Program-made: the position numbers and the translations under genes
DNA from: Williamsia serinedens
Lineage (GTDB): Bacteria; Actinomycetota; Actinomycetes; Mycobacteriales; Mycobacteriaceae
Assembly: GCF_024171725.1 (NCBI RefSeq)
Contig: NZ_JAMTCG010000011.1
Span: 1-64,000 of the forward strand
Direction: 5' to 3'
DNA length: 64,000 nt
The notes under the pieces: model-generated
Databases searched by the model: none
What the model was told of the DNA's origin: nothing
The model's input: only the letters and a program-made list of their open reading frames with translations
Shown: piece by piece, positions 10,279 to 60,368 of the stretch
Numbering within the stretch: position 1 is the stretch's first letter
Layout: each line of letters opens with the position of its first letter

Positions 10279-10525
10279 CCCGCTGACCTCCTTACGCCAT
10301 CAAACCCCAACCCATTGAGCTACCGCGACCCGACGACCTCCCGCACAAACGCGGCTCCCGCACAAACGGCTTGGTCTGGTGGTGCGGTCGAGCCACTCAC
10401 CCACTCCTCCCCCGCCCGGCCAGGATGCCGGCGAGCCCACCACAACCACTGCGGTGCTGCGCACCGAATCGGAGCGGCCCTGCGGGCCGCACGGTGACCC
10501 CGGCCTAGCGGCCGGGGCGCATTTA
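10279..10525. repeat. Upstream flank of leader repeat A, shared with flank of copy C
   Basis: 247 bases without a gene. From about 10317 to 10490 it aligns by eye with about 16633-16800 (shared GAGCTACCGCG, GCTCCCGCACA, TGGTCTGGTGG and GGAGCGGCC blocks). At 10498-10517 a hairpin CCCCGGCC/GGCCGGGG sits just before the type I element. This flank may contain the promoter, but I see no clear hexamers. Confidence 0.5.
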
Positions 10526-10707
10526 TTTGCCCTTCTGGCCGTCCGATTTTGACCGGCGTCGTCCGCCGCACAACCCCTGACGTGCCGCCCCTGCGGGGTC
10601 GAGAAACTTCTCTCCCCCACTCGCTGCGCTCGCAGAGAACTTTCCCGATCAGGGGTTGTGCTCTGTCCTCCTTTGCCGGTCTTTATCTCCCTTGCCAGAA
10701 GGGCAAA
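10526..10707 (+). repeat. Type I long-hairpin leader repeat, copy A
   Basis: Nested stems: outer TTTGCCCTTCTGGC (10526-10539) with GCCAGAAGGGCAAA (10694-10707); GACCGGC (10551) with GCCGGTC (10675); GCACAACCCCTGA (10568-10580) with TCAGGGGTTGTGC (10649-10661); and an inner stem at 10599-10613 with 10634-10648, 13 of 15 paired. The apical loop holds CTCGCTGCGCTCG. It ends 27 bases before the start of the next gene. Five more copies lie downstream in the same orientation. Confidence 0.9.
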
Positions 10708-10734
10708 AAGATTGGCGGACAACAGGAGGCAGCC

Positions 10735-10908
10735 ATGACCGGTATCGACCCCATCCTCGCCGCGCAGGTGGCGTGGCGCATGCTCGCAACCCCCACCGAC
10801 GGACCGTTCGACGCCCTGGGCGTGGACGAGAAGGCCGCTCTGATGGAGCTGGGCCTGGACGACCCCGCGATCCGCGAGGCCGCGACCGTCACCGTCGAGA
10901 TCGCCTGA
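10735..10908 (+). CDS. Small hypothetical protein behind leader repeat A
   Basis: 57 residues from ATG 10735 with AGGAGG at 10724-10729. Acidic and helical (DPILAAQVAWRMLATP, DEKAALMELGLDDPAIREAA), ending in a strand-like VTVEIA. No family recognised. Followed after 12 bases by the next gene, so a two-gene operon under the leader. It could be a small anti-defence protein given its place in the predicted leading region, but nothing specific supports this. Confidence 0.65.
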   Translation: MTGIDPILAAQVAWRMLATPTDGPFDALGVDEKAALMELGLDDPAIREAATVTVEIA

Positions 10909-10920
10909 GAGGGGCAGGAC

Positions 10921-11289
10921 ATGAGCACCAACCACATTCACCTCGACCCCGATGCCCTGACGGTGGAAGGCCCGAACCTGACCGCCGTCGCCGTGGTCGC
11001 CGCGATGAGGGGGATCAGCAAGAACCAGGCCCGCGAACAGCTCCTCGCCGAATGGGACGAGCGGCTGGTGTCGGGGATCCACTCCGAGGCGCAGATGGCC
11101 ACCGACTGGCTCGCCAAGGCCCGCGACAACACCATCGCCGGGGACCTCGCGACCGCCGCCCTCGACGTGATCGCCGCCCAGGAATGCCACGCCGCGATGC
11201 AGGTCTACCGCGAGCAGCGTGAGCACTGCGCCGCGATGCGCCGCATGAACGCCGAGCACCCCGACCTCCGGGACCAGAACTACCGCTGA
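10921..11289 (+). CDS. Hypothetical helical protein
   Basis: 122 residues from ATG 10921 with GAGGGGCAGGA upstream. Predicted mostly alpha-helical (VAVVAAMRGISKNQAREQLL, ATDWLAKARDNTI, ECHAAMQVYREQREHCAAM), with one H-x3-C-x7-C style cluster near the end that may or may not bind metal. No known domain. Second gene of the leader A operon; the transcript appears to end at the hairpin at 11349-11371. Confidence 0.65.
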   Translation: MSTNHIHLDPDALTVEGPNLTAVAVVAAMRGISKNQAREQLLAEWDERLVSGIHSEAQMATDWLAKARDNTIAGDLATAALDVIAAQECHAAMQVYREQREHCAAMRRMNAEHPDLRDQNYR

Positions 11290-11348
11290 CCCGACCAGGG
11301 TTCGCGGGACGCGGACAGCCCGACCGGGTTGCCGCACAACAAAAACAA

Positions 11349-11371
11349 CCAGCCGATCCCTAGTCGGCTGG
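11349..11371 (+). terminator. Rho-independent-type terminator
   Basis: Stem CCAGCCGA/TCGGCTGG around a 7-base loop, followed by CTGTTT. It lies between the leader A operon and the ParB-like gene. Confidence 0.75.
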
Positions 11372-11402
11372 CTGTTTCACTCACAGATTAGAGGAGACAC
11401 CA

Positions 11403-13043
11403 GTGGGAAACAACCAGAACACCACCCCCGCCGCCGCGACCACCGAGGCGATCATCGAGCACGTCGACCCGGCCACCCTCGTGGTCGACACGAACGTGCG
11501 GACCGAGGCCAGTGTCGACCGGGCGTTCGTCGCGTCGATCAAGGAGCGCGGGGTGATCCAGCCGGTCCTCGCCACCCGCGACAGCGAGGGCACCCTGCAC
11601 GTGCGCGACGGGCAGCGTCGCACCCTCGCCGCGCGGGAAGCCGAGCTGACCAGCATCCCGGTGTACGTAATCGCGACCGACGCCGCCGGGGACGAGGCTG
11701 AGGTCGAGCGGATCACCGATCAGCTCATCGCCAACGAGCACCGCGCCGACCTCACCAGCACCCAGCGGGTGCAGGCCGCGCAGCAGTTGATCGCGCTCAA
11801 CGTCTCGCGCACCAAGATCGGCAAGGTGACTCGGCTGGGGTCGACCAAGGCCGTCGACGCCGCCGTCGCCGTCGCGGGCAGTGAGGCCGGGATCAACGGT
11901 CTGGCGTGGGGCCTGACGATCGAGCAGGCCGCGATCCTCGCCGAGTACGAGGACGCCGGCGACACCGAGGCCGTGGAGGCGCTGACCGCCGCAGCCGGTG
12001 AGGGCCGGTTCGACCACAAGGCCGCGCAGCTCGCCGCGACCGCCGGTGACCGGGCCGCGATCCGCGCAGCCGCCGCCCCGCTCATCGAGGCCGGGTACAC
12101 GATCCTCGAGTCCCGCCCGTGGGGCTACGGCAGCGAGTACACGCCGCTGAGCCGCCTGGTGCACATCGAGACCGGCGAGGACGTCACCGACGATCAGGTG
12201 TCGTCGCTGACGCGGGAGTACCTCGCCGCCGACGTCGACGTCGAGGAGGTCTGGACCGACGCCGAGGGCCTCCCGGTCGATGAGTCCCGCATCGACTGGT
12301 CGCTCGATGAGGACTCCGACCCTGCCGACACCCCGCGTGAGGGATGCCTGGACCCGCGCACCCTGACCGAGGGCGTGGCAGCGGTCGTGACGTGGTTCCA
12401 CACCAACCCCGCCGAGGACGGACTGGAAACGGCGTCCGCACGCTGGAACCGGCAGCACAACCAGGACGCGACACTCGCCGCCGCGACCGAGGCCGGTGCG
12501 GTCACCGAGACCGGGGAGATCGACCACGAGGCCCTCGCGGCAGCGCAGAAGGAGAAGGAGGCCGCCGAGCGCCGCCAGGTGAAGGCCCTCAACAAGGCCG
12601 GTCTCGCCGCCCAAGAGGTGCGTCGCGAGCACGTGCGGACCCTGCTGGCCCGCAAGACCCTCCCGAAGGGCAGCGGAGCCGCCGTGGCCCGGTTCACCAC
12701 CGAACTGATGTGGCGGTTCTACGACCAGCTCGGCCTGACCCGTCAGGACGCCGACACCCGCAAGATCGCCGCCGACCTGCTCGGTGGGGACCCGCTCGCT
12801 CTCGGGGAGGGAGCGTCGACCGAACGGGCGCAGGTGATCGCGCTGGCCGTGGTGTGCGCCGCGCACGAGGCGAACCTGCCCAAGGACGCGTGGCGCGGTG
12901 GCCACGAGTACAACCGCAACGTCGCGGCGGCACGGGTCGCCTACCTGCGATTCCTGGCCGACGTCACCGGCTACACGCTGGCCGACGTCGAGAAGGTCGT
13001 CACCGGCGACCTGACCGCCGACCAGATCGACCTCACCGCCTGA
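11403..13043 (+). CDS. ParB/RepB/Spo0J-domain protein (accessory, leading-region type)
   Basis: 546 residues from GTG 11403 (GAGGAG at 11391). The N-terminal ParB/Srx-like domain (about 20-125) has the phosphate-binding core RDGQRRTLAAREAELTSIPV and, about 35 residues on, IANEHRADLT, with an HTH-like SRTKIGKVTRLGSTKAVDAA after it. The remaining about 400 residues are unfamiliar, acidic and helical. ParB-fold proteins bind DNA as CTP-dependent clamps or act as nucleases. Large accessory ParB homologues are common in plasmid leading regions. The true partition pair is probably the one at 60.4-61.5 kb, so this one likely has another job. It has no leader repeat directly upstream. Confidence 0.8.
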   Translation: MGNNQNTTPAAATTEAIIEHVDPATLVVDTNVRTEASVDRAFVASIKERGVIQPVLATRDSEGTLHVRDGQRRTLAAREAELTSIPVYVIATDAAGDEAEVERITDQLIANEHRADLTSTQRVQAAQQLIALNVSRTKIGKVTRLGSTKAVDAAVAVAGSEAGINGLAWGLTIEQAAILAEYEDAGDTEAVEALTAAAGEGRFDHKAAQLAATAGDRAAIRAAAAPLIEAGYTILESRPWGYGSEYTPLSRLVHIETGEDVTDDQVSSLTREYLAADVDVEEVWTDAEGLPVDESRIDWSLDEDSDPADTPREGCLDPRTLTEGVAAVVTWFHTNPAEDGLETASARWNRQHNQDATLAAATEAGAVTETGEIDHEALAAAQKEKEAAERRQVKALNKAGLAAQEVRREHVRTLLARKTLPKGSGAAVARFTTELMWRFYDQLGLTRQDADTRKIAADLLGGDPLALGEGASTERAQVIALAVVCAAHEANLPKDAWRGGHEYNRNVAAARVAYLRFLADVTGYTLADVEKVVTGDLTADQIDLTA

Positions 13044-13053
13044 CCCCGCCCGC

Positions 13054-13087
13054 GTGGCGGCGGGACCAATCCCGGTCCCGCCGCCAC
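13054..13087 (+). terminator. Terminator hairpin after the ParB-like gene
   Basis: Perfect 14-bp stem GTGGCGGCGGGACC/GGTCCCGCCGCCAC around six bases, 11 bases after the stop. No T-run, as is usual in high-GC actinobacteria. Confidence 0.75.
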
Positions 13088-13119
13088 CGGTGCCCTCGCT
13101 CTGCCCAGGAGGACCACCC

Positions 13120-13470
13120 ATGCTCGTCGAACCCGAACTGTTCGCCCACTGCCCGCTCCCGGGCTGCGACACCCTCACGGCCACGCAAGGCCAACCGTGC
13201 GACGGCTGCCGGGAGGCGTTCGGCGCCCTGCTCGCCCACACCCCCGGAGGTGCCCCTCTCACCGCCGCCGACCAGGCAGCCCGCGACGCCGAGACCCTCG
13301 CCGCCTACCGCAGCCACGCCGCACTCACCACCGCCGACGCCGGCGACGACACCGAGGCCGGCGAGGGTGAGACCCGGTCGAACCAGCGGTGCTGGCTGTG
13401 CGAGCAACGCCGCCGCTGCACCCGCATCGCCCGGCGATGGGAGTGCCGCGACTGCGCCACAATCGCATGA
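13120..13470 (+). CDS. Small zinc-finger protein
   Basis: 116 residues from ATG 13120 (AGGAGG at 13107). Two cysteine clusters: CPLPGCD...PCDGC near residues 9-29 and, at the C-terminus, CWLCEQRRRC...WECRDC. Together they make one or two zinc ribbons of the type seen in actinophage and plasmid accessory proteins. A long Ala/Asp/Thr linker joins them. Probably nucleic acid or protein binding. It follows the ParB-like gene beyond a terminator and precedes a second strong hairpin, so it may have its own promoter. Confidence 0.7.
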   Translation: MLVEPELFAHCPLPGCDTLTATQGQPCDGCREAFGALLAHTPGGAPLTAADQAARDAETLAAYRSHAALTTADAGDDTEAGEGETRSNQRCWLCEQRRRCTRIARRWECRDCATIA

Positions 13471-13500
13471 TGGACGGCGGCCTGGCGGCCGCGAGTGGTG

Positions 13501-13523
13501 TGGCCCCGGATCGACCGGGGCCA
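13501..13523 (+). terminator. Terminator hairpin
   Basis: Perfect 9-bp stem TGGCCCCGG/CCGGGGCCA with loop ATCGA, 30 bases after the zinc-finger gene and 50 bases before the type II leader element. The gap 13471-13789 holds only these two structures. Confidence 0.75.
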
Positions 13524-13573
13524 CACCACCCCCATCGACTCACCTGGGACTGGTCCGTGACGCCACCGAGTGT

Positions 13574-13747
13574 GGCTGGCCGGGGACCCCGACCGGTCAA
13601 CCCACACTCCGGGACTTTCGCGTGTTCTCCGCTGCGCTACGTCCACGCGCTGCACCGACCACGGCCACCCGGGCTCGCTACGCTCGCAGCCGAAGTCGGC
13701 TCCGGTCCCTGCGCTCTGGCGGGGTTGACCGGCCACCCCAGCCAGCC
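13574..13747 (+). repeat. Type II long-hairpin leader repeat, copy G
   Basis: Outer stem GGCTGGCCGGGG (13574-13585) with CCCCAGCCAGCC (13736-13747), one mismatch. Second stem CCGGTCAACCC (13593-13603) with GGGTTGACCGG (13722-13732), perfect. The interior shares CTCGCTACGCTCGCAG and TCCGCTGCGCTACG motifs with copy H at 23787-23958. It sits 42 bases before the 82-residue gene. Confidence 0.85.
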
Positions 13748-13789
13748 CTGACCACGGCGGTCACACACCGCCTACGAAAGGGAAACCCG

Positions 13790-14038
13790 ATGCGCCGCAA
13801 CACCTGGTCCTACGACAACATCACTGGCACCACCGCCGACGCCGACCTCATCATCCGCGCCCACACAGTCCTCGGCGGCGGATTCATCGCCCTGGCCGAC
13901 CTCGAGGCCATGGTCGACATCGCCCCCACCGACTGGGACCTCGCACTGCACAGCATCGAGATCCTCGGTTACGGCGCGATCATCGGCGGCGGGCTACTGC
14001 TCACCGTCACCCCCCGCTACGCCGACCCCGACGCCTAA
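13790..14038 (+). CDS. Small hypothetical protein behind type II leader G
   Basis: 82 residues from ATG 13790 with GAAAGGGAAA upstream. The middle reads ADADLIIRAHTVLGGGFIAL then DLEAMVDIAPTDWDLALHSI, an alternation of helices that may form a small winged-helix-like unit, and it ends in a hydrophobic GGGLLLTV strand. No family recognised, and no transmembrane segment is convincing. Single-gene unit between type II leader G and type I leader B. Confidence 0.65.
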   Translation: MRRNTWSYDNITGTTADADLIIRAHTVLGGGFIALADLEAMVDIAPTDWDLALHSIEILGYGAIIGGGLLLTVTPRYADPDA

Positions 14039-14168
14039 CCCGGACCCCGGGGCACCCCGCCGCCCGCGGCCGACGGGGTCGCAGCGGGGGTGCTGGGCGC
14101 CCCCGGAATCGGAGCGCCCCTGCGGGTCGCACTGTCGACCCCGGCCTAGCGGCCGGGGCGCTTGCTGA

Positions 14169-14355
14169 TTTGCCCTTCTGGCCGTCCGATTGTGACCGGC
14201 GTCGTCCGCCGCACAACAGCGCGTGCGCGGCCTCCGGCGGGAGACGACACCAGTTCTCAACCCGCCCTCGCTGCGCTCGGTGAGAACTGGCCCCGCTCCC
14301 CTGTTGCGCTCTGTCCTCCTATGCCGGTCTTTATCTCCCTTGCCAGAAGGGCAAA
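14169..14355 (+). repeat. Type I long-hairpin leader repeat, copy B
   Basis: Outer arms identical to copy A (14169-14182 with 14342-14355). The second stem is changed on both sides: CAACAG (14214-14219) with CTGTTG (14301-14306). The inner stem is also replaced on both sides: CCAGTTCTCA (14250-14259) with TGAGAACTGG (14281-14290). The loop keeps CTCGCTGCGCTCG. Downstream CGGAC/GTCCG makes a small extra hairpin near the ribosome site. The gap 14039-14404 contains no gene. Confidence 0.9.
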
Positions 14356-14404
14356 AAGATTGGCGGACAACGGGTCCGTCACCTCAGAGGCAAGGAGGAC
14401 CGCC

Positions 14405-15097
14405 ATGGTCAGCTCGAAGGATCACAAGGTTTCCCAGGTCGAGCGCCGCGCGCGCGACCGTCACCGCCCGCGCCACGAGACCACCCCGGTGCCCGCACGC
14501 ACCAACGGTGTCGTGACCCGCCTGCACATCACCGCCGCCGGTGAGCAGGCCGGGACCGTCCGCGTGATCGCCCCCGGCACCGACGTTCCCGCGCTCGTCG
14601 TCGAGCTGCCCGGATTCACCATGCAGTTCCTGTGCTGCGAGCAGGTGCAGCACGTCCTCGGACTGTTCGCCCTCGCCCGCCAGGCCCGAATGGGGATGCC
14701 CGAGCGTCTCGCGATCCCCGGACTGCGCAGCGCCGCCGAGCTGGCCGACATGCATTCCACGCTCACCTGGACCCGCGTCCCTATGGGCGCAGCCAGCCGG
14801 TCGACGTTCACCCACCCCGTCACCCGCAACGTCACCCCGTGCGTGACCCTGAGCATCGACCCCGTCGCGATCACCATGCTCGACACCACCGCGATCGAGA
14901 CCACCGTCGAGACCATGCAGCGCGCCCACAAGCTCGCCGTCGCCACCTTCGACGACGGATACATCTACCGACACAACAGCGCCGCGCCCAGCTGGACACC
15001 CCGCGCCGCACACCGGTTCGCAGTCCGCGGAACCGGCTGGCTCGTCGACCACCCCGACCGCAAAGACCCCCCGGTCACGATCCCGCCCCGGCCGTGA
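14405..15097 (+). CDS. Hypothetical protein behind leader repeat B
   Basis: 230 residues from ATG 14405 with AAGGAGG at 14392-14398. A very basic N-terminal tail (QVERRARDRHRPRHE) precedes a mixed alpha/beta body (LHITAAGEQAGTVRVIAPG, VVELPGFTMQFLCCEQ, VTLSIDPVAITMLD). I do not recognise the family. No membrane segment, signal peptide or catalytic motif. The basic tail would suit nucleic acid contact. A strong terminator stem begins 6 bases after the stop. Confidence 0.65.
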   Translation: MVSSKDHKVSQVERRARDRHRPRHETTPVPARTNGVVTRLHITAAGEQAGTVRVIAPGTDVPALVVELPGFTMQFLCCEQVQHVLGLFALARQARMGMPERLAIPGLRSAAELADMHSTLTWTRVPMGAASRSTFTHPVTRNVTPCVTLSIDPVAITMLDTTAIETTVETMQRAHKLAVATFDDGYIYRHNSAAPSWTPRAAHRFAVRGTGWLVDHPDRKDPPVTIPPRP

Positions 15098-15102
15098 TCC
15101 CC

Positions 15103-15132
15103 AGGCCCCGGCCCATCCACAGGCCGGGGCCT
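15103..15132 (+). terminator. Terminator hairpin
   Basis: AGGCCCCGGCC paired with GGCCGGGGCCT, 11 bp perfect around an 8-base loop, just after the leader B gene. Confidence 0.75.
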
Positions 15133-15155
15133 ACGGCGGTCCGCACAACCGCGAC

Positions 15156-15196
15156 CGGTGGGGTGGCAGGTCCATGCTGGACCCACCACCCCACCG
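15156..15196 (+). promoter_or_regulatory. Hairpin directly upstream of a ribosome site
   Basis: CGGTGGGGTGG (15156-15166) pairs with CCACCCCACCG (15186-15196), with an inner GGTCC/GGACC pairing. It ends 4 bases before the GGGAG site of the 99-residue gene, so it could insulate or regulate translation. It is a different, shorter structure than the type I and II leaders. Confidence 0.5.
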
Positions 15197-15210
15197 ACCC
15201 GGGAGCACCG

Positions 15211-15510
15211 ATGATCTGCTGGAGCGTCACCGCATTCACCGCCACCCACCCCGATGACGGCATCCTCACCGCCGACGCCGCCACCAGCCTCACCGACGCC
15301 CGACTGGCGGCCGGCGAGGTCGCCATCGCTGCGCTCGACGACCTCGCCGGCCGCTACCCCGACTCCCCGCCCTTCCTGTCGATCAGCATCGACGACGCAC
15401 CCGTCCTCGTCGCCGCCGCCGGCAAAACCCGCGCCGGCGGCGTCGACTTCCAAACCCTCATTGACCAGGTCGAGCAGATGCGGCGGACGGTCGGTGTTCT
15501 ACGAGACTGA
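15211..15510 (+). CDS. Hypothetical protein
   Basis: 99 residues from ATG 15211 with GGGAG 10 bases upstream. Reads MICWSVTAFTATHPDD, then LAAGEVAIAALDDLAGRY and SISIDDAPVLVAAAGKTR, ending VEQMRRTVGVLRD. Small alpha/beta protein without recognised domain. Converges with the HNH gene on the minus strand, whose stop is 18 bases away. Probably a separate unit between terminator 15103-15132 and the HNH gene. Confidence 0.6.
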   Translation: MICWSVTAFTATHPDDGILTADAATSLTDARLAAGEVAIAALDDLAGRYPDSPPFLSISIDDAPVLVAAAGKTRAGGVDFQTLIDQVEQMRRTVGVLRD

Positions 15511-15528
15511 CGGCCCCGCACTCAACTA

Positions 15529-16617
15529 CTAGGCGGGAAGACGGTTCGACTTGGTCCTGTTGCACCGCCAGCACAGGGTCTGCAAGTTCTCCCGGACTGA
15601 CAGTCCTCCACGCGAGACCGGAATGATGTGGTCCACTTCCAGCAACAGGTGAGGCTCCACCATTACCGACACTCCACATCCCTGACACGTGAAATTGTCG
15701 CGTTGCTTGATCTCGCTTCGCAGTCGCGCGGTCATCAACGCACGCTGACCGGCCGCGCTCCTCTTGAACCGAATCTTCTCGGCGAGGAAAAAAACGAGAT
15801 GGTCAATGGTCTCGGTGTCCAGGATGATCCTGGCAACCTGGCTACTGTTCCCGCCAGCGCTCACGTACTCGAAAATGTACTCCGGGTAGGGAATTTCTAC
15901 CGAGTTCAGGCGGACGCCTACTTTTGCCATGAAGCGGTCCCAGTAATGCTCGACAATGAAGCGCGGTGGGTCAAATGACGCCAAGAGTGACTCCTCGCGC
16001 TCCGAAAGATTCCTGACCGCGCCCTCCAAACGCGCGACTTCAGCGCCCAACGCTTCCACCTGCGTAAGTCGGCTCTCCTCTGGTTTGATGTTGAAGTACT
16101 TGCTTAAGTACTTCAAGGGGTCGTTCGATGCGTTCCGGACCGTTTGCAGCGAACAGGTGTGCACATTCGATGCTGACCCAGACGAAACGTTGCGGTCCCG
16201 CTGATAGTTGAACGCACTCCTGTTCTCAAATGACGCCAGGTGCGACTGACTCCCCGCCGCCGAGGTGCCTAGCGTCAACCGTTCACTACGGCGGAGCTCG
16301 TCGAGGTAACCCGCGATCTGGTTGTGCTCCTCCACGACCTGCTGAAGGGCGCTTCGCTGTCGTACGAACGGCTCGCTCGCGAAATATAGGCGGGCGCGAA
16401 TCGCGCGGAGAATTTCAGGACCAAAGTACGCTAACGCGACCAAGAAAATCGCGGGGATGGTGATGAACCAGATTGAGACAAAAAGATAACGGACTACATA
16501 AAAAATAATCACCAGTAGAATTATCGCAACAACTATCGGCAACGATCCACCCCGTCGACGTCGGCTCGGGCAATGCTCGAACAGCATGCTATGGCACAAA
16601 TCGGACGTACAGCGCAC
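15529..16617 (-). CDS. Membrane-anchored HNH endonuclease
   Basis: 362 residues (or 352 from ATG 16587). Two N-terminal membrane segments (about 26-43 LPIVVAIILLVIIFYVV and 47-66) are followed by a long helical/coiled-coil region (about 75-230) and a C-terminal HNH domain. The HNH has C-x2-C zinc half-sites (CQGCG near 311; CWRC near 351), EVDHIIPVSRGG with the catalytic His, and the closing N-x3-K-S-N-R. It should nick or cut DNA at the inner face of the membrane. Codons and base composition are clearly less GC-rich than the flanks, and it runs against them, so it was probably acquired separately. Role in defence against incoming phage or plasmid DNA is inference. Confidence 0.85.
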   Translation of the reverse strand: MRCTSDLCHSMLFEHCPSRRRRGGSLPIVVAIILLVIIFYVVRYLFVSIWFITIPAIFLVALAYFGPEILRAIRARLYFASEPFVRQRSALQQVVEEHNQIAGYLDELRRSERLTLGTSAAGSQSHLASFENRSAFNYQRDRNVSSGSASNVHTCSLQTVRNASNDPLKYLSKYFNIKPEESRLTQVEALGAEVARLEGAVRNLSEREESLLASFDPPRFIVEHYWDRFMAKVGVRLNSVEIPYPEYIFEYVSAGGNSSQVARIILDTETIDHLVFFLAEKIRFKRSAAGQRALMTARLRSEIKQRDNFTCQGCGVSVMVEPHLLLEVDHIIPVSRGGLSVRENLQTLCWRCNRTKSNRLPA

Positions 16618-16820
16618 CGTTCTGCGCCTGCATTCGAGCTACCGCGGCCCCGGTGACCTACCGGGCAAACGCTGCTCCCGCACAGCTGGCCTGGTCTGGT
16701 GGCGCGGTGGAGCCGCTCGCCCGGTCCTTGAGGCCGGCGGTGACGCCAGTGGCCGGGATGCGGGCGTGCTGCGCACGCTCGGAGCGGCCTGCGGCCGCGC
16801 GGTGAACCGATCTTGTTGGT

Positions 16821-16999
16821 TTTCCCTGCTGGCCGTCCGATTGTGACCGGCGGGCTCCGCCACGCAACCCCGCGACACCGGTGTGCCCTGGCGGGTCGGA
16901 AAACTTCGCAACCCGGCTGCGCCTGAGAACTTTTCCGTTCGCGGGGTGGCGCTCTGTCGCCCTGATGCCGGTCTTCATCTCCCTTGCCAGCAGGGCAAA
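16821..16999 (+). repeat. Type I long-hairpin leader repeat, copy C
   Basis: Most divergent copy. Outer stem CCCTGCTGGC (16824-16833) with GCCAGCAGGG (16986-16995): a T-A pair of copy A is replaced by G-C on both strands. GACCGGC/GCCGGTC kept. ACCCCGCGA (16867-16875) pairs with TCGCGGGGT (16939-16947); CGGAAAA (16897-16903) with TTTTCCG (16931-16937). It lacks the CTCGCTGCGCTCG loop match and the downstream GGCGGAC. The gap 16618-17032 has no gene. Confidence 0.85.
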
Positions 17000-17032
17000 C
17001 AAATTGCCGCGCACCGAAGGGGAGCAGTCGTC

Positions 17033-17983
17033 ATGGGTAGTCGTCGCACCGTCAGCACTCGATCGGCCGAGCAGAAGGCCGCCGATCGCCGCGCCAAGGC
17101 CGAGCAGATGCAGGCCCAGATCGCCGAGCAGGTGCAGGCGATGGCCGAGTCGACCGGCTGGCGCGAATGGTTGGACTACCTCGCGAACTTCCACAGCTAC
17201 AGCCTGCGGAACATCCTGCTTATCGCTGCTCAGCGCCCCGACGCGACCCAGGTCGCCGGCTTCCGCACCTGGCAGTCCCTCGGGCGGCAGGTCCGCAAGG
17301 GCGAGAGAGCGATCCGCATCTTCGGGTTCTCCTCGAAGAAAGTCACCGAGACCGACCCCGCCACCGGCGAGGAGTCGCAGACCCGCATTCCTCGGTTCCC
17401 CATCCTGAGCGTGTTCGACATCGCCCAGACCGACCCCATCGACGGGACCGAGGACCGCACCGTCACCGAGCCCGGCGACATCGTCACCCACGTGCAGGGT
17501 GAGGACGAGACCGGCATCTACGACCGGGTCGCCGCCTTCATCACCGCCCAGGGCTGGACCATCACCCGCGAGCAGATCGCCGGCACCACCAACGGATACA
17601 CCCGCGTTGACGGCACCAAGCAGATCGTTGTCGACGCCGACCTCGCGCCCGCGCAGGCAGCCAAGACGATGATCCACGAGACCGCCCACGCGCTGCTGCA
17701 CGCCGACCCCGACGGCAACCGCGTCGACACCGGCGACGTCGAGGCCCACCGCGGCATCCGCGAGGTCGAAGCCGAATCCGTCGCCTACGTCGTCGCCGCC
17801 CTCTGCGGCCTGGACACCAGCGCCTACAGCGTCGGCTACATCACCGGATGGGCCGACGGCGACCCCGAGCTGGTCACCGCCACCGCAACCCGAGTCCTCG
17901 CCTGCGTGCACCGCATCGCCGACGCCCTGCACCCCCACGACGACCAGGACGACACCGACAGCGCGGCGCCCGACGCGGCCTGA
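17033..17983 (+). CDS. ardC: ArdC-type anti-restriction protein with zinc metallopeptidase domain
   Basis: 316 residues from ATG 17033 (AAGGGGAG upstream). The N-terminal ssDNA-binding ArdC domain (about 10-135) includes NFHSYSLRNILLIAAQRPDA and FRTWQSLGRQVRKGERAI. The C-terminal zinc protease domain carries IHETAHALLH (H215, E216, H219), with third ligand E248 in the VEAESVAYVV helix. ArdC proteins coat or protect the incoming single strand and block host type I/II restriction early in conjugation. Position in the predicted leading region, behind a leader repeat, matches that role. Probably co-transcribed with the next gene 43 bases on. Confidence 0.9.
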   Translation: MGSRRTVSTRSAEQKAADRRAKAEQMQAQIAEQVQAMAESTGWREWLDYLANFHSYSLRNILLIAAQRPDATQVAGFRTWQSLGRQVRKGERAIRIFGFSSKKVTETDPATGEESQTRIPRFPILSVFDIAQTDPIDGTEDRTVTEPGDIVTHVQGEDETGIYDRVAAFITAQGWTITREQIAGTTNGYTRVDGTKQIVVDADLAPAQAAKTMIHETAHALLHADPDGNRVDTGDVEAHRGIREVEAESVAYVVAALCGLDTSAYSVGYITGWADGDPELVTATATRVLACVHRIADALHPHDDQDDTDSAAPDAA

Positions 17984-18026
17984 GCCGACCCCCGTTCGAC
18001 AACCACCAACAGAAAGAGAGATCGCC

Positions 18027-18488
18027 ATGAGCACCCGACAGGAATGGGCCACCACCAGCGACGCCCTCTACGGCGTCATCACCCGCGCCGAGTCCGTCGA
18101 GTACGTCGGACAGACCATCGACACCAGCCACGCCCTGCAACTGTGCGGCGGCAGCGGCGACGGCCTGGTCATCGAAGGCGACCCCGGCGAGCTGGTCGCG
18201 TTCATCGACCAGGTCCACGCCCACGTCCACGCATTCCTCGACACTCCCCCACGGGTCGAGCTGATCGTGGTCCGCGACCCCGACGGCGACACCACCACCC
18301 GGCTGTTCCTCAACGGCCGCGAGACCCCCACCGCGACGGTCACCGTCGACGCCGGCGCCGGCTGGACCCGCGGCGACTGGACCGCCCACCGCGACAGCGC
18401 GGTCGCCGACGCGAGCTGTCCCGCCGTGGCCGCGGCGATCGGTGAGGCGTTCACCGACCCGCCCGGGGCCGAGCACATCACCGGCTGA
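18027..18488 (+). CDS. Hypothetical protein downstream of ardC
   Basis: 153 residues from ATG 18027 with AAAGAGAGA upstream. Soluble and acidic. Reads YVGQTIDTSHALQLCGGSGD, GDPGELVAFIDQVHAHVHAF, then a strand-rich half with dates such as VELIVVRDPDGDTTTRLFLN. No family recognised. Ends just before a perfect 15-bp terminator stem. Co-transcription with ardC suggests a helper role in establishment, by context only. Confidence 0.65.
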   Translation: MSTRQEWATTSDALYGVITRAESVEYVGQTIDTSHALQLCGGSGDGLVIEGDPGELVAFIDQVHAHVHAFLDTPPRVELIVVRDPDGDTTTRLFLNGRETPTATVTVDAGAGWTRGDWTAHRDSAVADASCPAVAAAIGEAFTDPPGAEHITG

Positions 18489-18496
18489 CGCCGGCG

Positions 18497-18529
18497 CCCC
18501 CGCCCGCCGGCGATGCCGGCGGGCGGGGG
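18497..18529 (+). terminator. Terminator hairpin, 15-bp perfect stem
   Basis: CCCCCGCCCGCCGGC pairs with GCCGGCGGGCGGGGG around GAT. It closes the ardC operon; the next leader repeat starts about 100 bases later. Confidence 0.8.
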
Positions 18530-18625
18530 TCGCGTCACGACCAGCAGCGGACCGGGCCTGCGGGCCCGGGCGGTGTCCTCATCGGAGCGGCCTGCGGCCG
18601 CGCAGAACTCCTGCCCTGTCGGGGG

Positions 18626-18811
18626 TTTGCCCTTCTGGCCGTCCGATCGTGACCGGCGTCGTCCGCCACGCAACCCCGCGACGTTCCGCCCCCAGGGGGT
18701 CGGGAAACTTCCCGTCCCGTACTCGCTGCGCTCGCACGAGAACTTTCCCGCTCGCGGGGTGGCGCTCTGTCCTCCTGCGCCGGTCGTCATCTCCCTTGCC
18801 AAAAGGGCAAA
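18626..18811 (+). repeat. Type I long-hairpin leader repeat, copy D
   Basis: Outer arms TTTGCCCTTCTGGC (18626-18639) and GCCAAAAGGGCAAA (18798-18811), one mismatch. ACCCCGCGA (18673-18681) with TCGCGGGGT (18752-18760); CGGGAAA (18701-18707) with TTTCCCG (18744-18750). The loop has CTCGCTGCGCTCG. GTCCGCC (18661-18667) could pair with GGCGGAC (18818-18824), crossing the outer stem. Upstream GGACCGGGCCTGCGGGCCCGG hairpin block is shared with E and F in variant form. No gene in 18489-18838. Confidence 0.9.
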
Positions 18812-18838
18812 CACGCAGGCGGACAACAGGAGGCCACC

Positions 18839-19657
18839 ATGACTGACGACAAGACGCTCACCCGTATCGGGAACCTGCTGCGGCAGGCCGAGGGCACCGA
18901 CAACGAGCACGAGGCGGCGACGTTCCTCCAAGCCGCGCAACGCTTGGCAACCGCCGCGTCGATCGACCTCGCTGTGGCCCGCGCCCACGACCCGTCCGGA
19001 GCACCGGCGGGACCGACGGTGCGGCAGGTCATCATCGGCAGCGCAGGCAAGCGCGGGCTGAAAACCTATGTGGCGCTGTTCGTGGCGATCGGGCATGCCA
19101 ACGACCTCAAGGTCGACGTCGCCCACAACTCGACGTTCGTCATGGCCTACGGCTTCCCCGGCGACATCGACGCCACCGAGGCGCTGTACTCGTCGCTGGT
19201 GGTGCAGATGGTCGCCGCGAGCGACGCCTACCTGAAATCCGGGGCCTACAAGCAGGAGGTCGCGGCCAAGGTCGTCACCGACCGCTCGGGGTGGCAGCCC
19301 CGGCGGCGGGTGGAGTACACGCCGCTGTCACCGATCACCGCGCGGCTGAACTTCCAGTCCGCGTTCGCCGAACGGGTCGGGGCACGGCTGCGGGAGGCCC
19401 GCGATGAGGCCCGGGCCGAGGCGGCCGCCGCCGACACCACCCGGTCGACGTCGACCGAGGTCGCGCTGCGCGGCAAAGAGGTCGAGGTCGTCGACTACCA
19501 CCGCTCGCAGTCGACCGCGCGCGGCACCTGGCGCGGATCGAGCGCATCGGCGGGGTACTCCGAAGGCGCACGCCGCGCCGGGGACCAGGCCGGTCGACGA
19601 GCCCGCATCGGCGACCAGGCCACCCTCGGCGGGCCGAGAGCCGCGATCGGATCCTGA
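18839..19657 (+). CDS. DUF2786-domain protein
   Basis: 272 residues from ATG 18839 with AGGAGG 10 bases upstream. The N-terminal DUF2786 motif (about 6-48) is TRIGNLLRQAEGTDNEHEAA followed by LQAAQRLATAASIDLA. A central alpha/beta region (70-170) and a highly charged coiled helix (REARDEARAEAAAA) follow, then a Gly/Ser/Arg tail. DUF2786 proteins are frequent on phages and plasmids; the function is unknown, though some carry peptidase-like domains. Single gene behind leader repeat D; no terminator hairpin obvious before the next leader. Confidence 0.8.
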   Translation: MTDDKTLTRIGNLLRQAEGTDNEHEAATFLQAAQRLATAASIDLAVARAHDPSGAPAGPTVRQVIIGSAGKRGLKTYVALFVAIGHANDLKVDVAHNSTFVMAYGFPGDIDATEALYSSLVVQMVAASDAYLKSGAYKQEVAAKVVTDRSGWQPRRRVEYTPLSPITARLNFQSAFAERVGARLREARDEARAEAAAADTTRSTSTEVALRGKEVEVVDYHRSQSTARGTWRGSSASAGYSEGARRAGDQAGRRARIGDQATLGGPRAAIGS

Positions 19658-19803
19658 GGCGACGATCGGCCGCCGGTCCCCGCCGTCGGGCGGGGCCGGT
19701 GGTGGTCGCGTCGCGACCAGCAGCGGACCGGGCCTGCCGGCCCGGGCGGTGTCCTCATCAGAGCGGCCTACGGCCGCGCAGAACCGATTGCCCTGTCGGG
19801 GGA

Positions 19804-19990
19804 TTTGCCCTTCTGGCCGTCCGATTGTGACCGGCGTCGTCCGCCGCACAACAGCGCCTGCGCGGCCTCCGGCGGGAGACGACACCAGTTCTCAACCCGC
19901 CCTCGCTGCGCTCGGAGAGAACTGGCCCCGCTCCCCTGTTGCGCTCTGTCCTCCTAAGCCGGTCTTCATCTCCCTTGCCAGAAGGGCAAA
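19804..19990 (+). repeat. Type I long-hairpin leader repeat, copy E
   Basis: Very close to copy B. Outer arms 19804-19817 with 19977-19990; CAACAG (19849-19854) with CTGTTG (19936-19941); CCAGTTCTC (19885-19893) with GAGAACTGG (19917-19925). GTCCGCC before the second stem and GGCGGAC (19997-20003) could form a crossing pair. The gap 19658-20038 contains no gene. Confidence 0.9.
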
Positions 19991-20038
19991 AAGATTGGCG
20001 GACAACGGGTCCGTCACCAGTTCCGAGGGAGTCTCGCC

Positions 20039-20971
20039 ATGACCGGACGCATCAACATCACCACCGTCGCCGACCTCGTCGCCGCGATCCCTGCCCTGCT
20101 CGGATTCATCCCGACCGAGTCGATGGTCGCCGTGGCCATGCGAGACGGGCGGGGGTTGTTCAGCGCACGTCAGGACCTGGCCGAGATCACCGAGAAGGTC
20201 GCCGCACACCTCGCCGCGATCATCGCCCGCAACGGCGCCGACCAGGTGCTGCTCGTCGGGATCGGGGCCGAGCCGACTGCCGAGGCGCACGCAGAACTCG
20301 CCGGTCACCTCGCGGACTACGGCATCGACGTCACCCGCCGGGTGCACGTGCGGACCTGCGAGCATGCCACCGAATACATCGACTATGTGACCGGTGAGAC
20401 CGGCATGACCCGCGACTACCGCGACAGCGAGATGACCACCACCCGCGCCGTCGAGGAGGGTCAGGCCATCCGAGGGTCACGGGAGGAATTCGCGCGGATG
20501 TTCGCGACCACCGACGCAGCCGCACCCGTCGACCCGGCGACCATCGACCCGGCGACCATCGCCCGGGACATGGCCGACGCGGTCAGCCGTGGCGTGGACC
20601 CCGGCGCCGACCTGGCCGCCCGGTTCGGTGCGCTCATCACCGATGTGAAGGTGCGTGACGCGATGCTGCGCCTGGGCGGGGAGCAGCCCGACACCGCCGC
20701 GCGTGTCATGGCCCGCACCGCCGCGCACCTGCGGTCCGACGCCCGCGCCCGGGTGCTCACCCTGGCGATGTTCTTCTTCTACGTCGCAGGAGACGGAGGT
20801 GCGGCCGGGATCGCTGCCGACACCGTCACCGAGGAAGGAGCCGAGCAGACCAGCCTCATGCGGCTGCTCGATCAGGCACTGACCGGCGCGATGCCGCCCC
20901 GCATCATCACCGGCCTCATCCCCACCCGCAAAGACGCCAGCACCTACCTCGGCGCGCTGTTCCCGCTGTAA
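20039..20971 (+). CDS. DUF4192-domain protein
   Basis: 310 residues from ATG 20039 with GAGGGAG upstream. The family signature is at the very N-terminus: ADLVAAIPALLGFIPTESMV, followed by alternating strands and helices over the first 150 residues. The C-terminal half is helical, with the expected DARARVLTLAMFFFYVAGDG block. DUF4192 is an actinobacterial family of unknown biochemical function found on chromosomes and large plasmids. Single gene behind leader repeat E, with a 13-bp terminator stem 9 bases after its stop. Confidence 0.85.
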   Translation: MTGRINITTVADLVAAIPALLGFIPTESMVAVAMRDGRGLFSARQDLAEITEKVAAHLAAIIARNGADQVLLVGIGAEPTAEAHAELAGHLADYGIDVTRRVHVRTCEHATEYIDYVTGETGMTRDYRDSEMTTTRAVEEGQAIRGSREEFARMFATTDAAAPVDPATIDPATIARDMADAVSRGVDPGADLAARFGALITDVKVRDAMLRLGGEQPDTAARVMARTAAHLRSDARARVLTLAMFFFYVAGDGGAAGIAADTVTEEGAEQTSLMRLLDQALTGAMPPRIITGLIPTRKDASTYLGALFPL

Positions 20972-20979
20972 GCGCCCGG

Positions 20980-21022
20980 CGGTGGGTATCGGACCCCGGG
21001 AAGCGGGAGCCGATACCCACCG
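20980..21022. terminator. Bidirectional terminator hairpin
   Basis: CGGTGGGTATCGG (20980-20992) and CCGATACCCACCG (21010-21022), 13 bp perfect around 17 bases. It lies between the DUF4192 gene and the converging small minus-strand frame. Confidence 0.75.
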
Positions 21023-21035
21023 GGTGCGGGGGGAG

Positions 21036-21194
21036 CTAACCGAGGAGGCCCGCGGGAACGTCGACGAACGACACGTCGCACCGCGCCGCCGCCGGCGCGC
21101 CGTCGGTCACCCACGACTCGAGCTGGCGCGCCGAGGGAGTCGGTACCGCATCCGACACCGCGCGACGCAGCGCGCGCTCAACAAGACTGGACAT
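21036..21194 (-). CDS. Possible 52-residue protein opposite the leader array
   Basis: ATG 21194 to TAG 21036, 52 residues. It begins MSSLVERALRRAVSDAVPTP and continues with ARQLESWVTDGAPAA, ending in DVSFVDVPAGLLG. Codons are GC3-rich like real genes, and the frame ends 14 bases from a bidirectional terminator, which suggests a real convergent gene. Against it: the ribosome site is poor and the length is short. No family recognised. Confidence 0.4.
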   Translation of the reverse strand: MSSLVERALRRAVSDAVPTPSARQLESWVTDGAPAAARCDVSFVDVPAGLLG

Positions 21195-21380
21195 GAGGAC
21201 CACGCTAGCCGTCCCCGCCGGCGTCGCCGGCGAACTCTCGCCGCGTGGCGGGCCGCCAGCAGGCTGCGCCCGCCGGCGGTGGTCGCGCCGCGACCAAGCA
21301 GCGGACCGGGCCTGCCGGCCCGGGCAGTGTCCTCATCGGAGCGGCCTGCGGCCGCGCAGACCGATTGCCCTGTCGGGGGT

Positions 21381-21565
21381 TTTGCCCTTCTGGCCGTCCG
21401 ATCGTGACCGGCGTCGTCCGCCACGCAACCCCGCGACGTTCCGCCCCGAGGGGTCGGGAAACTTCCCGTCCCGTACTCGCTGCGCTCGCACGAGAACTTT
21501 CCCGATCGCGGGGTGGCGCTCTGTCCTCCTGCGCCGGTCTTTATCTCCCTTGCCAGAAGGGCAAA
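21381..21565 (+). repeat. Type I long-hairpin leader repeat, copy F
   Basis: Very close to copy D but with an unbroken outer stem: 21381-21394 with 21552-21565. ACCCCGCGA (21428-21436) pairs with TCGCGGGGT (21506-21514); CGGGAAA (21455-21461) with TTTCCCG (21498-21504). Loop CTCGCTGCGCTCG. GGCGGAC at 21572-21578 could cross-pair with the GTCCGCC upstream of the second stem. Besides this copy and the small minus-strand frame, 20972-21611 is empty. Confidence 0.9.
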
Positions 21566-23786: not shown

Positions 23787-23958
23787 GGCTGGCCGGGGCC
23801 CCGACCGGTCAACCCACACTCCGGGACACTCGCGTGTTCTCCGCTGCGCTACGCCCACGCGCTCCACCGACCCCAGCCACCCGCACTCGCTACGCTCGCA
23901 GCCGAAGTCGGTTCCGGTCCCTGCGCTCTACGGGGTTGACCGGCCACCCCGGCCAGCC
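23787..23958 (+). repeat. Type II long-hairpin leader repeat, copy H
   Basis: Outer stem GGCTGGCCGGGG (23787-23798) with CCCCGGCCAGCC (23947-23958), 12 bp perfect. CCGGTCAACCC (23805-23815) with GGGTTGACCGG (23933-23943), 11 bp perfect. Interior closely matches copy G with scattered substitutions. It ends 43 bases before the next gene, as in copy G (42). Confidence 0.85.
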
Positions 23959-29025: not shown

Positions 29026-29408
29026 GGCGGATCCTCCGGGATCTCACGCGCCATTCCTCCCGACCCTCCGGCCGATGGCAGCCACAGAATACCGGCCCCC
29101 CGCCGGCGCTGTCAGCGCCGCCACGCGGCCCCCGGGGTGCTCTGGCAGACCTCGTTGCCCCGGGACACGGGAACGGTCTGCACACACCCAGGAAGGTTCA
29201 CCCCGCTCGCTGCACTGCCATCTCTGCACCCCGCTTCCTCGTCCTCACCTTCGTTCATCCGCATCCGCACCCATCGACGTCGACCAGCTCGCAGCCACCC
29301 TCCCAGGGCCACTGACGTGCCCCACCCAGAAAGATCCGACATACCTCTGGCAGATGTTCTGACTTGGCGGTGCCTGCCCGGTCTGTGCGGGCTACGCTGG
29401 GCCGCGTG
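29026..29408. promoter_or_regulatory. Divergent gap upstream of relaxase: candidate oriT and promoters
   Basis: 383 bases without a gene between a minus-strand coiled-coil protein and the relaxase. Contains a perfect hairpin GGCGCTG/CAGCGCC (29105-29119) and an A/T-rich patch near 29330-29355. A TACGCT -10-like hexamer (29393-29398) would start transcription at about the GTG/ATG, giving a leaderless relaxase message. MobF relaxases usually nick close to their own gene, so oriT most likely lies here. The nic sequence itself was not identified. Confidence 0.5.
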
Positions 29409-35410: not shown

Positions 35411-36031
35411 TTAGTCGTCGGGCCGGTAGGTGTCGCTGTCGGGGTCGTAGGTCCAGTGTTGGTCTCGGTAGTGGACGCCGCTCTCGGGGTCGGCGGGGTC
35501 GTCGACGACGGCGTCGCCGCGCTTGACGAGGTCCTCCATGTCGATGGTCGTCAGCTCTGGACCGTCATCGGCGTCGTCGTCGACGTCGGTGGTCGGTCGG
35601 GTCGTGCTGGTCTCGGGGCGGTCTGCGACATCGGTGGCCACGAACTCGTTGAGCTCGGGGTCGACGTGGGCCGGTCGGGGCCGGTAGGCGCAGCTGCCGC
35701 CGGCGGCGCACTCCCCCAGGTCGCGAGCCAGTCGCTCAACGACTGGCCAGAGGTCGACGCGGTGCCAGTTGCTCATCAGGTCCCAGTCGCGGACGGGGAC
35801 GCCTTTGACGGTGTACTGCTGCTGGTAGGCGGCGGTGTGCGCGGACATGAGGGCGGTGAGTTGCTCGACGGCACTGGGGTGACGGAACCAGCACGCGGGG
35901 ATCCGGTCGCCGAGGTCGTAGCGTTCGCGGGCCCACTGCACCCAGTCGGCGAGTTCGTCCCACAGTTCGGCGGCCGCGGCTTGGTCGAGGTGGCGCCAGA
36001 CGAACCGGGACCACTGGACGTCGCTGCTCAC
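35411..36031 (-). CDS. DUF4913-domain protein, last gene of the T4SS operon
   Basis: 206 residues from GTG 36031, overlapping the coupling-protein stop (GTGA). DUF4913 signature FVWRHLDQAAAAELWDEL and WVQWARERYDLGDRIPACW followed by H-x(11)-L-x-x-L-M-x-x-H (about 10-70). The C-terminal half is acidic and disordered (TTDVDDDADDGPEL), ending VHYRDQHWTYDPDSDTYRP. The family is found next to actinobacterial conjugation genes; the function is unknown, possibly an adaptor for the coupling protein. Confidence 0.8.
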   Translation of the reverse strand: MSSDVQWSRFVWRHLDQAAAAELWDELADWVQWARERYDLGDRIPACWFRHPSAVEQLTALMSAHTAAYQQQYTVKGVPVRDWDLMSNWHRVDLWPVVERLARDLGECAAGGSCAYRPRPAHVDPELNEFVATDVADRPETSTTRPTTDVDDDADDGPELTTIDMEDLVKRGDAVVDDPADPESGVHYRDQHWTYDPDSDTYRPDD

Positions 36032-60185: not shown

Positions 60186-60263
60186 CACCGTTGCGTGCGA
60201 GCGGCCGGGTTAACGGCCTGCCTGCTGATGCTGGCTAATTGATTAGCCATGACGTATTTACAT

Positions 60264-60351: not shown

Positions 60352-60368
60352 GATTTCGAGGAGGCTTC

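What the first reader, a model, noticed from the sequence alone, without database searches (positions are those of the whole stretch)
10526..21565. Six copies of a long nested-hairpin leader repeat (type I) with compensated stem changes
Seen: six elements of about 165-190 nt (A 10526-10707, B 14169-14355, C 16821-16999, D 18626-18811, E 19804-19990, F 21381-21565), all in the same orientation, each 27-49 bases before a start codon. Three or four nested stems are kept while sequences change on both sides. Outer T-A becomes G-C in C; the second stem is ACCCCTGA/TCAGGGGT in A, ACAG/CTGT in B and E, and ACCCCGCGA/TCGCGGGGT in C, D and F; the inner stem is CCAGTTCTCA/TGAGAACTGG in B but CGGGAAA/TTTCCCG in D and F and CGGAAAA/TTTTCCG in C. 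Such covariation is the mark of selected pairing in RNA or single-stranded DNA. I cannot match it to a named RNA family.
Basis: seen in the sequence. Interest (0 to 1): 0.92.

Follow-up and report, generated by a model that had tools for sequence, protein, structure and literature searches.

The report
Single-strand DNA promoters for plasmid transfer
Six repeated hairpins on a conjugative element of a bacterium, probably a Williamsia, look like promoters that exist only while the DNA enters a new cell as a single strand, so that its protective genes can be switched on at once; such promoters are known from E. coli plasmids, and this looks like a distinct version in high-GC Gram-positive bacteria.

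Summary
In detail: six hairpin elements, same orientation, each 27-49 nt before a start codon, with real compensatory changes. The RNA-leader reading is not favoured. The window is a conjugative element with a TrwC (MOBF) relaxase; the elements precede leading-region-type genes (ParB operon, ArdC, DUF2786, DUF4192) and point at the relaxase. Relatives occur in Rhodococcus, Williamsia, Nocardia and Mycobacterium/Mycolicibacterium. On 39 aligned elements the strand complementary to the mRNA folds better in 39 of 39, and 13 of 30 stem pairs change on both sides. The 3' arm of that strand carries TTGYGY, a 16-nt spacer (77 of 77 elements with the motif, of 83) and A(-11)-N-R-A-T(-7)-CGGA. Stretch -11 to -1 is an 11-nt internal loop, the size of an open transcription bubble. 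In duplex DNA this promoter points away from the gene; only in the folded single strand does it point into it. In 10 of 10 examined plasmids with a TrwC relaxase, all 20 elements share its strand. Best explanation: Frpo-type single-strand promoters, with bubble pre-opened, for expression in the recipient at entry. The papers searched show none in Actinobacteria. Transcription and the transferred strand are untested.

The parts
10526..10707 (-). Element A: minus-strand hairpin, putative single-strand promoter before a 57-aa ORF (10735), a 122-aa ORF and ParB_N gene 11403-13043. -10 CAAAAT at 10546-10551, -35 TTGTGC at 10568-10573 (both read on the minus strand); predicted +1 at 10694
14169..14355 (-). 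Element B before ORF 14405-15097 (no Pfam match). -10 CACAAT 14189-14194, -35 TTGTGC 14211-14216; predicted +1 14342
16820..17000 (-). Element C before ArdC-like gene 17033-17983. -10 CACAAT 16840-16845, -35 TTGCGT 16862-16867; predicted +1 16986
18626..18811 (-). Element D before DUF2786/DUF7168 gene 18839-19657. -10 CACGAT 18646-18651, -35 TTGCGT 18668-18673; predicted +1 18798
19804..19990 (-). Element E before DUF4192 gene 20039-20971. -10 CACAAT 19824-19829, -35 TTGTGC 19846-19851; predicted +1 19977
21381..21565 (-). Element F before gene 21612-22124 (DUF5888 match below its cut-off). -10 CACGAT 21401-21406, -35 TTGCGT 21423-21428; predicted +1 21552
13583..13717 (-). Second kind of hairpin (type II), copy 1, before ORF 13790-14038 (no Pfam match); TTGACC in upper stem, CACACT 20 nt further on
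23795..23929 (-). Type II, copy 2, before ORF starting 24002; relatives in Gordonia and Prescottella plasmids
29338..29351 (-). Weak candidate for the relaxase nick region (GACATACCTCTGGC on + strand, then a small inverted repeat), placed and oriented like the F nick motif
   Evidence: inference only
29409..33812 (+). MOBF relaxase-helicase (TrwC domain + AAA_30)
36028..37842 (-). TraG/VirD4-type coupling protein
11403..13043 (+). ParB_N-domain protein
17033..17983 (+). ArdC-like anti-restriction protein (ArdcN + Peptidase_M78/IrrE-like)
18839..19657 (+). DUF2786 + DUF7168 protein
20039..20971 (+). DUF4192 protein

Best explanation
Each element is a single-stranded-DNA promoter of the Frpo type. 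During conjugation the minus strand of this region enters the recipient, its 5' end (nick side, right of the genes) first. Each element on that strand folds into a nested hairpin. Its 3' arm acts as non-template strand: a -35 box (TTGYGY) sits inside stem 3; a spacer of 16 nt includes stem 2; the -10 element (A-11 N R A T-7) and discriminator (CGGA) lie in an 11-nt internal loop covering -11 to -1; stem 1 begins at +1. The loop thus presents a ready-opened transcription bubble to host RNA polymerase. The 5' arm of the same strand is the template, so transcription runs out of the hairpin base into the ParB, ArdC, DUF2786, DUF4192 and other genes, giving an mRNA starting near GCCAGAAGGGC with a 41-63 nt leader. 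Once the complementary strand is made the hairpin is lost and the boxes point away from the gene, so expression is confined to entry. Shown here: the structure, the strand it fits, the fixed promoter-like geometry, gene neighbourhood and orientation to the relaxase. Inferred: which strand is transferred, RNA polymerase use, timing.
For: Strand: minus fold more stable in 39 of 39 elements, mean -9.2 kcal/mol, DNA parameters, and with RNA parameters in 6 of 6; other hairpins in the 16 sources examined (n=497) average -1.6, sd 5.2, 63% negative, while 29 family hairpins there average -9.3, all negative. Non-Watson-Crick cells in stems 1-3: 56 cells in 11 columns G.T on minus, 10 cells in 3 columns A.C, 46 other. 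Promoter: T-34 39, T-33 38, G-32 39, A-11 39, A-8 39, T-7 39 of 39, position -10 random; 0 gap cells in the 51-nt non-template arm, template arm 53-56 nt. Of 83 distinct elements 77 have TTG-N3-spacer-NANN(A/C)T-CGGA; spacer 16 in 77 of 77, 15-18 allowed. Sigma contacts non-template bases of the -10 element (PMC3753650, abstract start in listing). Specificity: in the 64-kb window, hairpin (perfect stem of 9 or more) plus motif occurs only at 5 of the 6 elements (D has a stem mismatch), minus strand only; in 783 kb of other loci, overlaps not merged, 51 hits, 48 of them family. Separate case: Hoyosella L079 8417-8611, other stem sequence, TTGACT-16-GAGAAT, 38 nt before an annotated gene facing mobF. 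Orientation: I searched 15 plasmid records chosen from the hits; 10 have TrwC, and in these 20 of 20 element hits (5'-arm pattern) share its strand, nearest 3.0-3.6 kb upstream in 8 of 10. Genes: ArdC, DUF4192 and ParB-operon starts recur downstream.
Against: No transcript, no in vitro test. TTGYGY and C/G at -12 are weak matches to TTGACA/TATAAT. 6 of 83 elements lack the full motif: five have no TTG at that place, one differs only at -4. 5 of 15 plasmid records have no TrwC match; W12's element is 18 kb and W13's about 40 kb or more from the relaxase; W09, without TrwC, carries two sets of three on opposite strands. Only 62 of 77 testable elements had an RBS and start within 110 nt by a crude script. 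The template-side loop GGAGA is also conserved, unexplained. The nick candidate is weak: the motif CACCTCNTGC with one mismatch is no commoner than chance in the window (27 against 24.3) and the window's own candidate site is not among those hits, as it differs at two positions; the 10 upstream regions were matched with a loose pattern. The F control is weak: two hairpin regions fold better as the transferred strand, but a third folded region (before ORF 3785) favours the other strand (-43.1 vs -50.8), all five listed long-stem hairpins there lean the same way whatever their role, and the motif could not be placed in F. In the union of both strands' predicted pairs the wobble excess shrinks to 58 against 33 cells. 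Regions of Gordonia, Tomitella, Mycolicibacterium chubuense and Nocardia terpenica showed no motif-bearing hairpin: 1 of 5 outside regions did, the Hoyosella one.
Confidence: 0.83

Rival explanations
1. Structured mRNA leader (riboswitch, attenuator or protein-binding leader) acting on the plus-strand transcript.
For: Position just before start codons with covarying stems.
Against: The plus strand folds worse in 39 of 39; wobble changes favour the minus strand; invariant loop bases match a promoter read on the minus strand with fixed spacing, and only one arm is length-fixed; no Rfam match; strand tied to the relaxase in 10 of 10 plasmids with TrwC, which an mRNA leader does not need.
Confidence: 0.07
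2. Single-strand origin: the hairpin primes complementary-strand synthesis in the recipient (primer RNA) and gene expression is secondary. Frpo itself is titled as serving both uses.
For: The same structure would serve; Masai and Arai's title names both transcription and primer RNA synthesis (title seen in reference lists).
Against: Six copies in the window and up to three elsewhere per set, each before a gene and repeatedly before the same genes, fit gene expression better; not exclusive.
Confidence: 0.06
3. Binding or recombination site acting as duplex or cruciform (partition, iteron, integrase site or MITE).
For: Repeated, palindromic, near a ParB gene.
Against: No target-site duplication in 6 of 6; stems covary, so sequence alone is not what is kept; one arm length-fixed and the other not; fixed orientation to the downstream gene.
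Confidence: 0.04

Closest known systems
Frpo1/Frpo2 of plasmid F and the single-strand promoters of ColIb-P9 (enterobacterial leading regions)
   Same: Hairpin on the transferred strand that rebuilds -35/-10 boxes upstream of leading-region genes (passages of PMC9849209, and PMC11541004); F also has a MOBF relaxase and antirestriction, ssb and ParB-like genes read toward the nick.
   Different: No sequence similarity found to the F leading region (best blastn E 0.12); other phylum; an 11-nt loop matching a whole bubble; six copies in the window. The Frpo boxes of F were not located here, nor which F hairpin is Frpo1 or Frpo2.
Frpo-like candidates in other conjugative elements (Samuel et al. 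2024, PMC11541004)
   Same: Same proposed function in anti-defence islands (passages).
   Different: Found by BLAST with known Frpo or by E. coli consensus boxes; mycobacter, rhodococcus and actinomyc do not occur in the main text (supplements not seen).
EGeRS establishment sequences of pLS20 (Bacillus, PMC8708921)
   Same: Repeated regulatory sequences before establishment genes of a Gram-positive conjugative plasmid (passages).
   Different: The authors judge ssDNA promoters highly unlikely there, since the nicked strand is the non-template strand; here the inferred transferred strand is the template.

Membership tests
Frpo-type single-stranded DNA promoters (by mechanism) | Forms a stable stem-loop as single strand, on the strand that templates the mRNA | tested here: met
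   Minus strand better in 39 of 39, covariation 0 of 500 shuffles; computed folds only
Frpo-type single-stranded DNA promoters (by mechanism) | Hairpin rebuilds -35 and -10 boxes at promoter spacing | tested here: met
   TTG-16-NANN(A/C)T in 77 of 83 elements; weak matches to the E. coli consensus
Frpo-type single-stranded DNA promoters (by mechanism) | Lies in the leading region and that strand is the one transferred | tested here: inconclusive
   Orientation to the relaxase agrees in 20 of 20; nick motif weak; nick not mapped
Frpo-type single-stranded DNA promoters (by mechanism) | RNA polymerase initiates on the ssDNA form; early, transient expression in the recipient | not testable with these tools
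   needs bench work
Frpo sequence family of enterobacteria (by homology) | Sequence similarity to Frpo/ssi | tested here: not met
   Best blastn E 0.12 for the six elements against the F leading region L082; ColIb-P9 not compared
Rfam RNA families | Gathering-score match | tested here: not met
   0 matches in the window
MITE | Target-site duplication | tested here: not met
   0 of 6

The most novel reading that the evidence does not exclude
A separate class of single-strand promoters in Mycobacteriales conjugative plasmids, in which the hairpin's internal loop is a pre-opened transcription bubble (-11 to -1) so that the polymerase need not melt DNA; with the type I family, the Hoyosella form and perhaps the unrelated type II family, meaning that expression from the entering strand is general in these Gram-positive plasmids and was reached independently of enterobacterial Frpo.
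Probability: 0.48. Interest if true: 0.87.

Novelty: new variant of a known kind. Interest (0 to 1): 0.77.

Why it matters
In the papers seen here, experimentally supported single-strand promoters come from E. coli plasmids F and ColIb-P9, and the one Gram-positive case examined (pLS20) was argued to lack them. If right, expression from the entering strand also serves plasmids of Rhodococcus, Williamsia, Nocardia, mycobacteria and perhaps Gordonia, marks their leading regions, tells the transferred strand, and gives a list of first-expressed, mostly unnamed genes (DUF4192, DUF2786, DUF6573 and others) as anti-defence candidates. The bubble-shaped loop is a compact, testable design for a promoter that works only as single strand.

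Tried and rejected
Rejected: RNA leader on the plus strand; MITE; a 7-bp extra pairing (GTCCGCC with GGCGGAC just outside the hairpin) seen by eye in five window copies, dropped because it fails in window copy C and in rows such as L026a (alignment). Hairpin-plus-motif search in one region each of Gordonia, Tomitella, Mycolicibacterium chubuense and Nocardia terpenica gave nothing. Of three non-family hits in 783 kb, two were set aside as probable chance and not followed up (L045 5772, whose other strand folds better; L066 7424, whose own strand folds better). The F boxes could not be assigned with the same motif. Ends of the 67,590-bp contig: no terminal overlap of 16-400 nt. Literature searches (listings; passages read in five papers) for ssDNA promoters with Rhodococcus, Actinobacteria or Mycobacterium gave nothing relevant (0 papers; 4 papers, judged by title, one of them by its Frpo passage); the library lacks most subscription papers. 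On re-checking, the nick motif and the F control proved weaker than first written; the odds were lowered slightly (0.85 to 0.83, novel case 0.50 to 0.48) for that reason.
Full report
What was checked. The six elements are present at the given places (C is 16820-17000), align over their full length and are the only matches to element B in the 4.6-Mb own genome. Each ends 27-49 nt before a start codon. Rfam gave no match at gathering score.

Surroundings. The window is most of a 67,590-bp contig. Same-genus relatives have contigs of the same lengths as named Williamsia records (52,996, 101,696 and 76,336 bp), so the host is most likely Williamsia (inference). The window encodes a TrwC relaxase with helicase domain at 29409-33812, the only TrwC match in the genome, a TraG/VirD4-type coupling protein at 36028-37842, an M23-NlpC/P60 protein at 50312-52411 and a ParA at 60249-61127. 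Left of the relaxase, on the plus strand, lie genes of leading-region type: ParB_N, ArdC-like, DUF2786, DUF4192, DUF3560, then glutaredoxin, a DnaB N-terminal domain protein and WhiB. The six elements stand before some of these.

Relatives. Blastn with elements B and D found 46 and 50 plasmid records, only Rhodococcus (43 and 49) and Nocardia (3 and 1). A pattern scan of the species-genome collection gave 44 stretches, from Rhodococcus, Williamsia, Nocardia, Mycolicibacterium novocastrense, Mycobacterium sp. OAS707, two Mycobacteriaceae MAGs, one contig named Kitasatospora arboriphila, and one Sterolibacteriaceae MAG that the element profile did not confirm. In the own family 7 of 201 sampled genomes, own included, matched a 3'-arm pattern exactly; in the genus 5 of 8, own included, matched a 5'-arm pattern with one mismatch allowed. 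In annotated plasmids the elements stand before DUF4192, ArdC, small ORFs leading a ParB operon, DUF6573 next to ssb, and hypothetical genes.

Structure and strand. 39 distinct elements were aligned as minus strands. Stems 1 (14 bp), 2 (7 bp) and 3 (9 bp) pair in 95.2% of cells; 13 of 30 pairs change on both sides; 0 of 500 shuffles reach the covariation score. Stem 2 reads GACCGGC/GCCGGTC, CGTCGGC/GCCGACG or GATCGGC/GCCGATC, among others. The minus strand folds better in 39 of 39, by 2.8 to 19.1 kcal/mol. As a control, 497 other hairpins in 16 sources average -1.6 (sd 5.2, 63% negative) against -9.3 for 29 family hairpins, all negative: there is a background bias, and the family is well beyond it. 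Non-Watson-Crick cells in stems 1-3 are G.T on the minus strand 56 times (11 columns), A.C 10 times (3 columns), other 46; in pairs predicted on both strands 29 to 5; in the union 58 to 33. Related sequences make these counts non-independent.

Promoter geometry. Along the 3' arm of the minus strand: TTGYGY, 16 nt, then C/G A N R A T CGGA N G, then stem 1. A-11, A-8 and T-7 are 39 of 39, -10 is random, TTG is 39/38/39 of 39. Non-template loop length is 11 in 39 of 39 and the stem-3-to-stem-2 stretch 10 nt in 39 of 39, while the matching stretches of the other arm vary (11-12 and 11-15 nt). This one-sided length constraint is what a promoter in one arm predicts. A wider collection gave 93 elements, 83 unique; 77 carry the full motif with spacer 16 in all 77, and six exceptions are listed. 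The loop spans -11 to -1, where sigma is known to hold non-template -10 bases (abstract start of PMC3753650; that CGGA resembles a GGGA discriminator is recalled, not looked up). The template-side loop is also conserved (GGAGA), which the model does not explain.

Direction logic. In duplex DNA the boxes would fire leftward, away from the gene. Only when the minus strand folds on itself does its 5' arm become template, and transcription then leaves the hairpin base toward the gene. That is the published Frpo idea (passages of PMC9849209; PMC11541004). Predicted starts are 41, 63, 47, 41, 62 and 60 nt before the start codons of A-F.

Transferred strand. In 15 complete plasmid records, chosen from the blastn hits and searched whole with a 5'-arm pattern (2 mismatches), 35 hits were found and none of the reversed control; hits outside my loci were not checked as full elements. 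10 of 15 have a TrwC relaxase; in these 20 of 20 hits are on its strand, as are 6 of 6 in the window. The nearest lies 3.0-3.6 kb upstream of the TrwC match in 8 of 10; W12 is at 18 kb, W13 about 40 kb or more away; in the window it is 8 kb. W09, without TrwC, has two sets of three facing opposite ways. In the 420 nt before mobF, 10 of 10 sources matched a loose ACACCT/TACCTC-type pattern, by eye followed in about six by a small inverted repeat, in the order and orientation of the F motif ACACCCCACGC with its repeat. By that comparison the minus strand enters first. This is weak: the short motif is not rarer than chance, the window's own site differs from it at two positions, and two of the ten regions hold a second match.

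Other cases. A search for long hairpins with the motif in place found 5 of the 6 window elements and nothing else in 64 kb, none on the other strand. In 783 kb of other loci it found 51 (overlapping loci not merged), 48 of them family; of the other three, Hoyosella L079 8417-8611 has a 14-bp stem of other sequence, TTGACT-16-GAGAAT, a 9 kcal/mol strand difference, and lies just before a gene facing mobF. Regions of four other genera showed none. In F, the hairpin before the antirestriction gene and the region before ssb fold better as the transferred strand (-79.6 vs -72.6; -86.3 vs -78.8), but the region before ORF 3785 does not (-43.1 vs -50.8), and all five listed long-stem hairpins there lean one way, so F is only a weak control.

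A second kind. The window's type II repeats (13583-13717, 23795-23929) have relatives in 36 plasmid records: 26 Prescottella, 9 Gordonia, 1 Rhodococcus. Seven Gordonia regions were fetched. With the two window copies, the minus strand, flanks included, folds better in 9 of 9, by 7.9 to 14.8 kcal/mol, and carries TTGAC in 8 of 9 (TGGAC in L089) and CANNNT in 9 of 9, at 19-20 nt, so their promoter reading is weaker. 1 of 7 of these plasmids has TrwC, where element and relaxase share the strand.

Judgement. Mechanism class: Frpo-type single-strand promoter, 0.83. Not a member of the F Frpo sequence family. No paper in the listings, judged by titles and abstract starts, nor the passages read, reports such elements in Actinobacteria; library limits apply. 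What is missing is any transcript and a mapped nick.

Noticed in passing
window 13583-13717 and 23795-23929; L084-L090: A second repeated hairpin family (type II) before small ORFs, also on Gordonia and Prescottella plasmids, in the fetched Gordonia cases mostly just after ArdC, ParB, DUF4192 or other leading-type genes.
   Followed up: partly
window 18503-18608, 19679-19784, 21257-21362 (and GC-rich stretches near 10395-10520, 14099-14160): Conserved GC-rich inverted repeats between the end of one gene and the next element; the three repeats fold no better on the minus strand; perhaps terminators.
   Followed up: partly
alignment A2 columns 46-50: The template side of the bubble loop is conserved as GGAGA in nearly all of 39 elements; it may pair weakly with T-7C-6 or matter for initiation. 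Unexplained.
   Followed up: no
upstream of mobF in 10 sources; window 29338-29351: A nick-like motif, often with an inverted repeat that differs between plasmids: weak candidate oriT of actinobacterial MOBF plasmids.
   Followed up: partly
NZ_CP017300.1 (W09): A 423-kb plasmid with two oppositely facing sets of three elements, as if two leading regions had been joined.
   Followed up: no
L066 4765, L076 7268, L037 1878: Variant elements in which the -35 place reads TTCGAA or similar instead of TTG; maybe a subfamily.
   Followed up: no
L066 7424-7563: A non-family hairpin with TTGAAC-17-GATGAT on the better-folding strand; may lie inside a gene; set aside as probable chance.
   Followed up: no
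L078 10398-10607: Hairpin just before mobF in Mycolicibacterium chubuense with a large strand difference (-42.2 vs -29.9), without the promoter motif.
   Followed up: no
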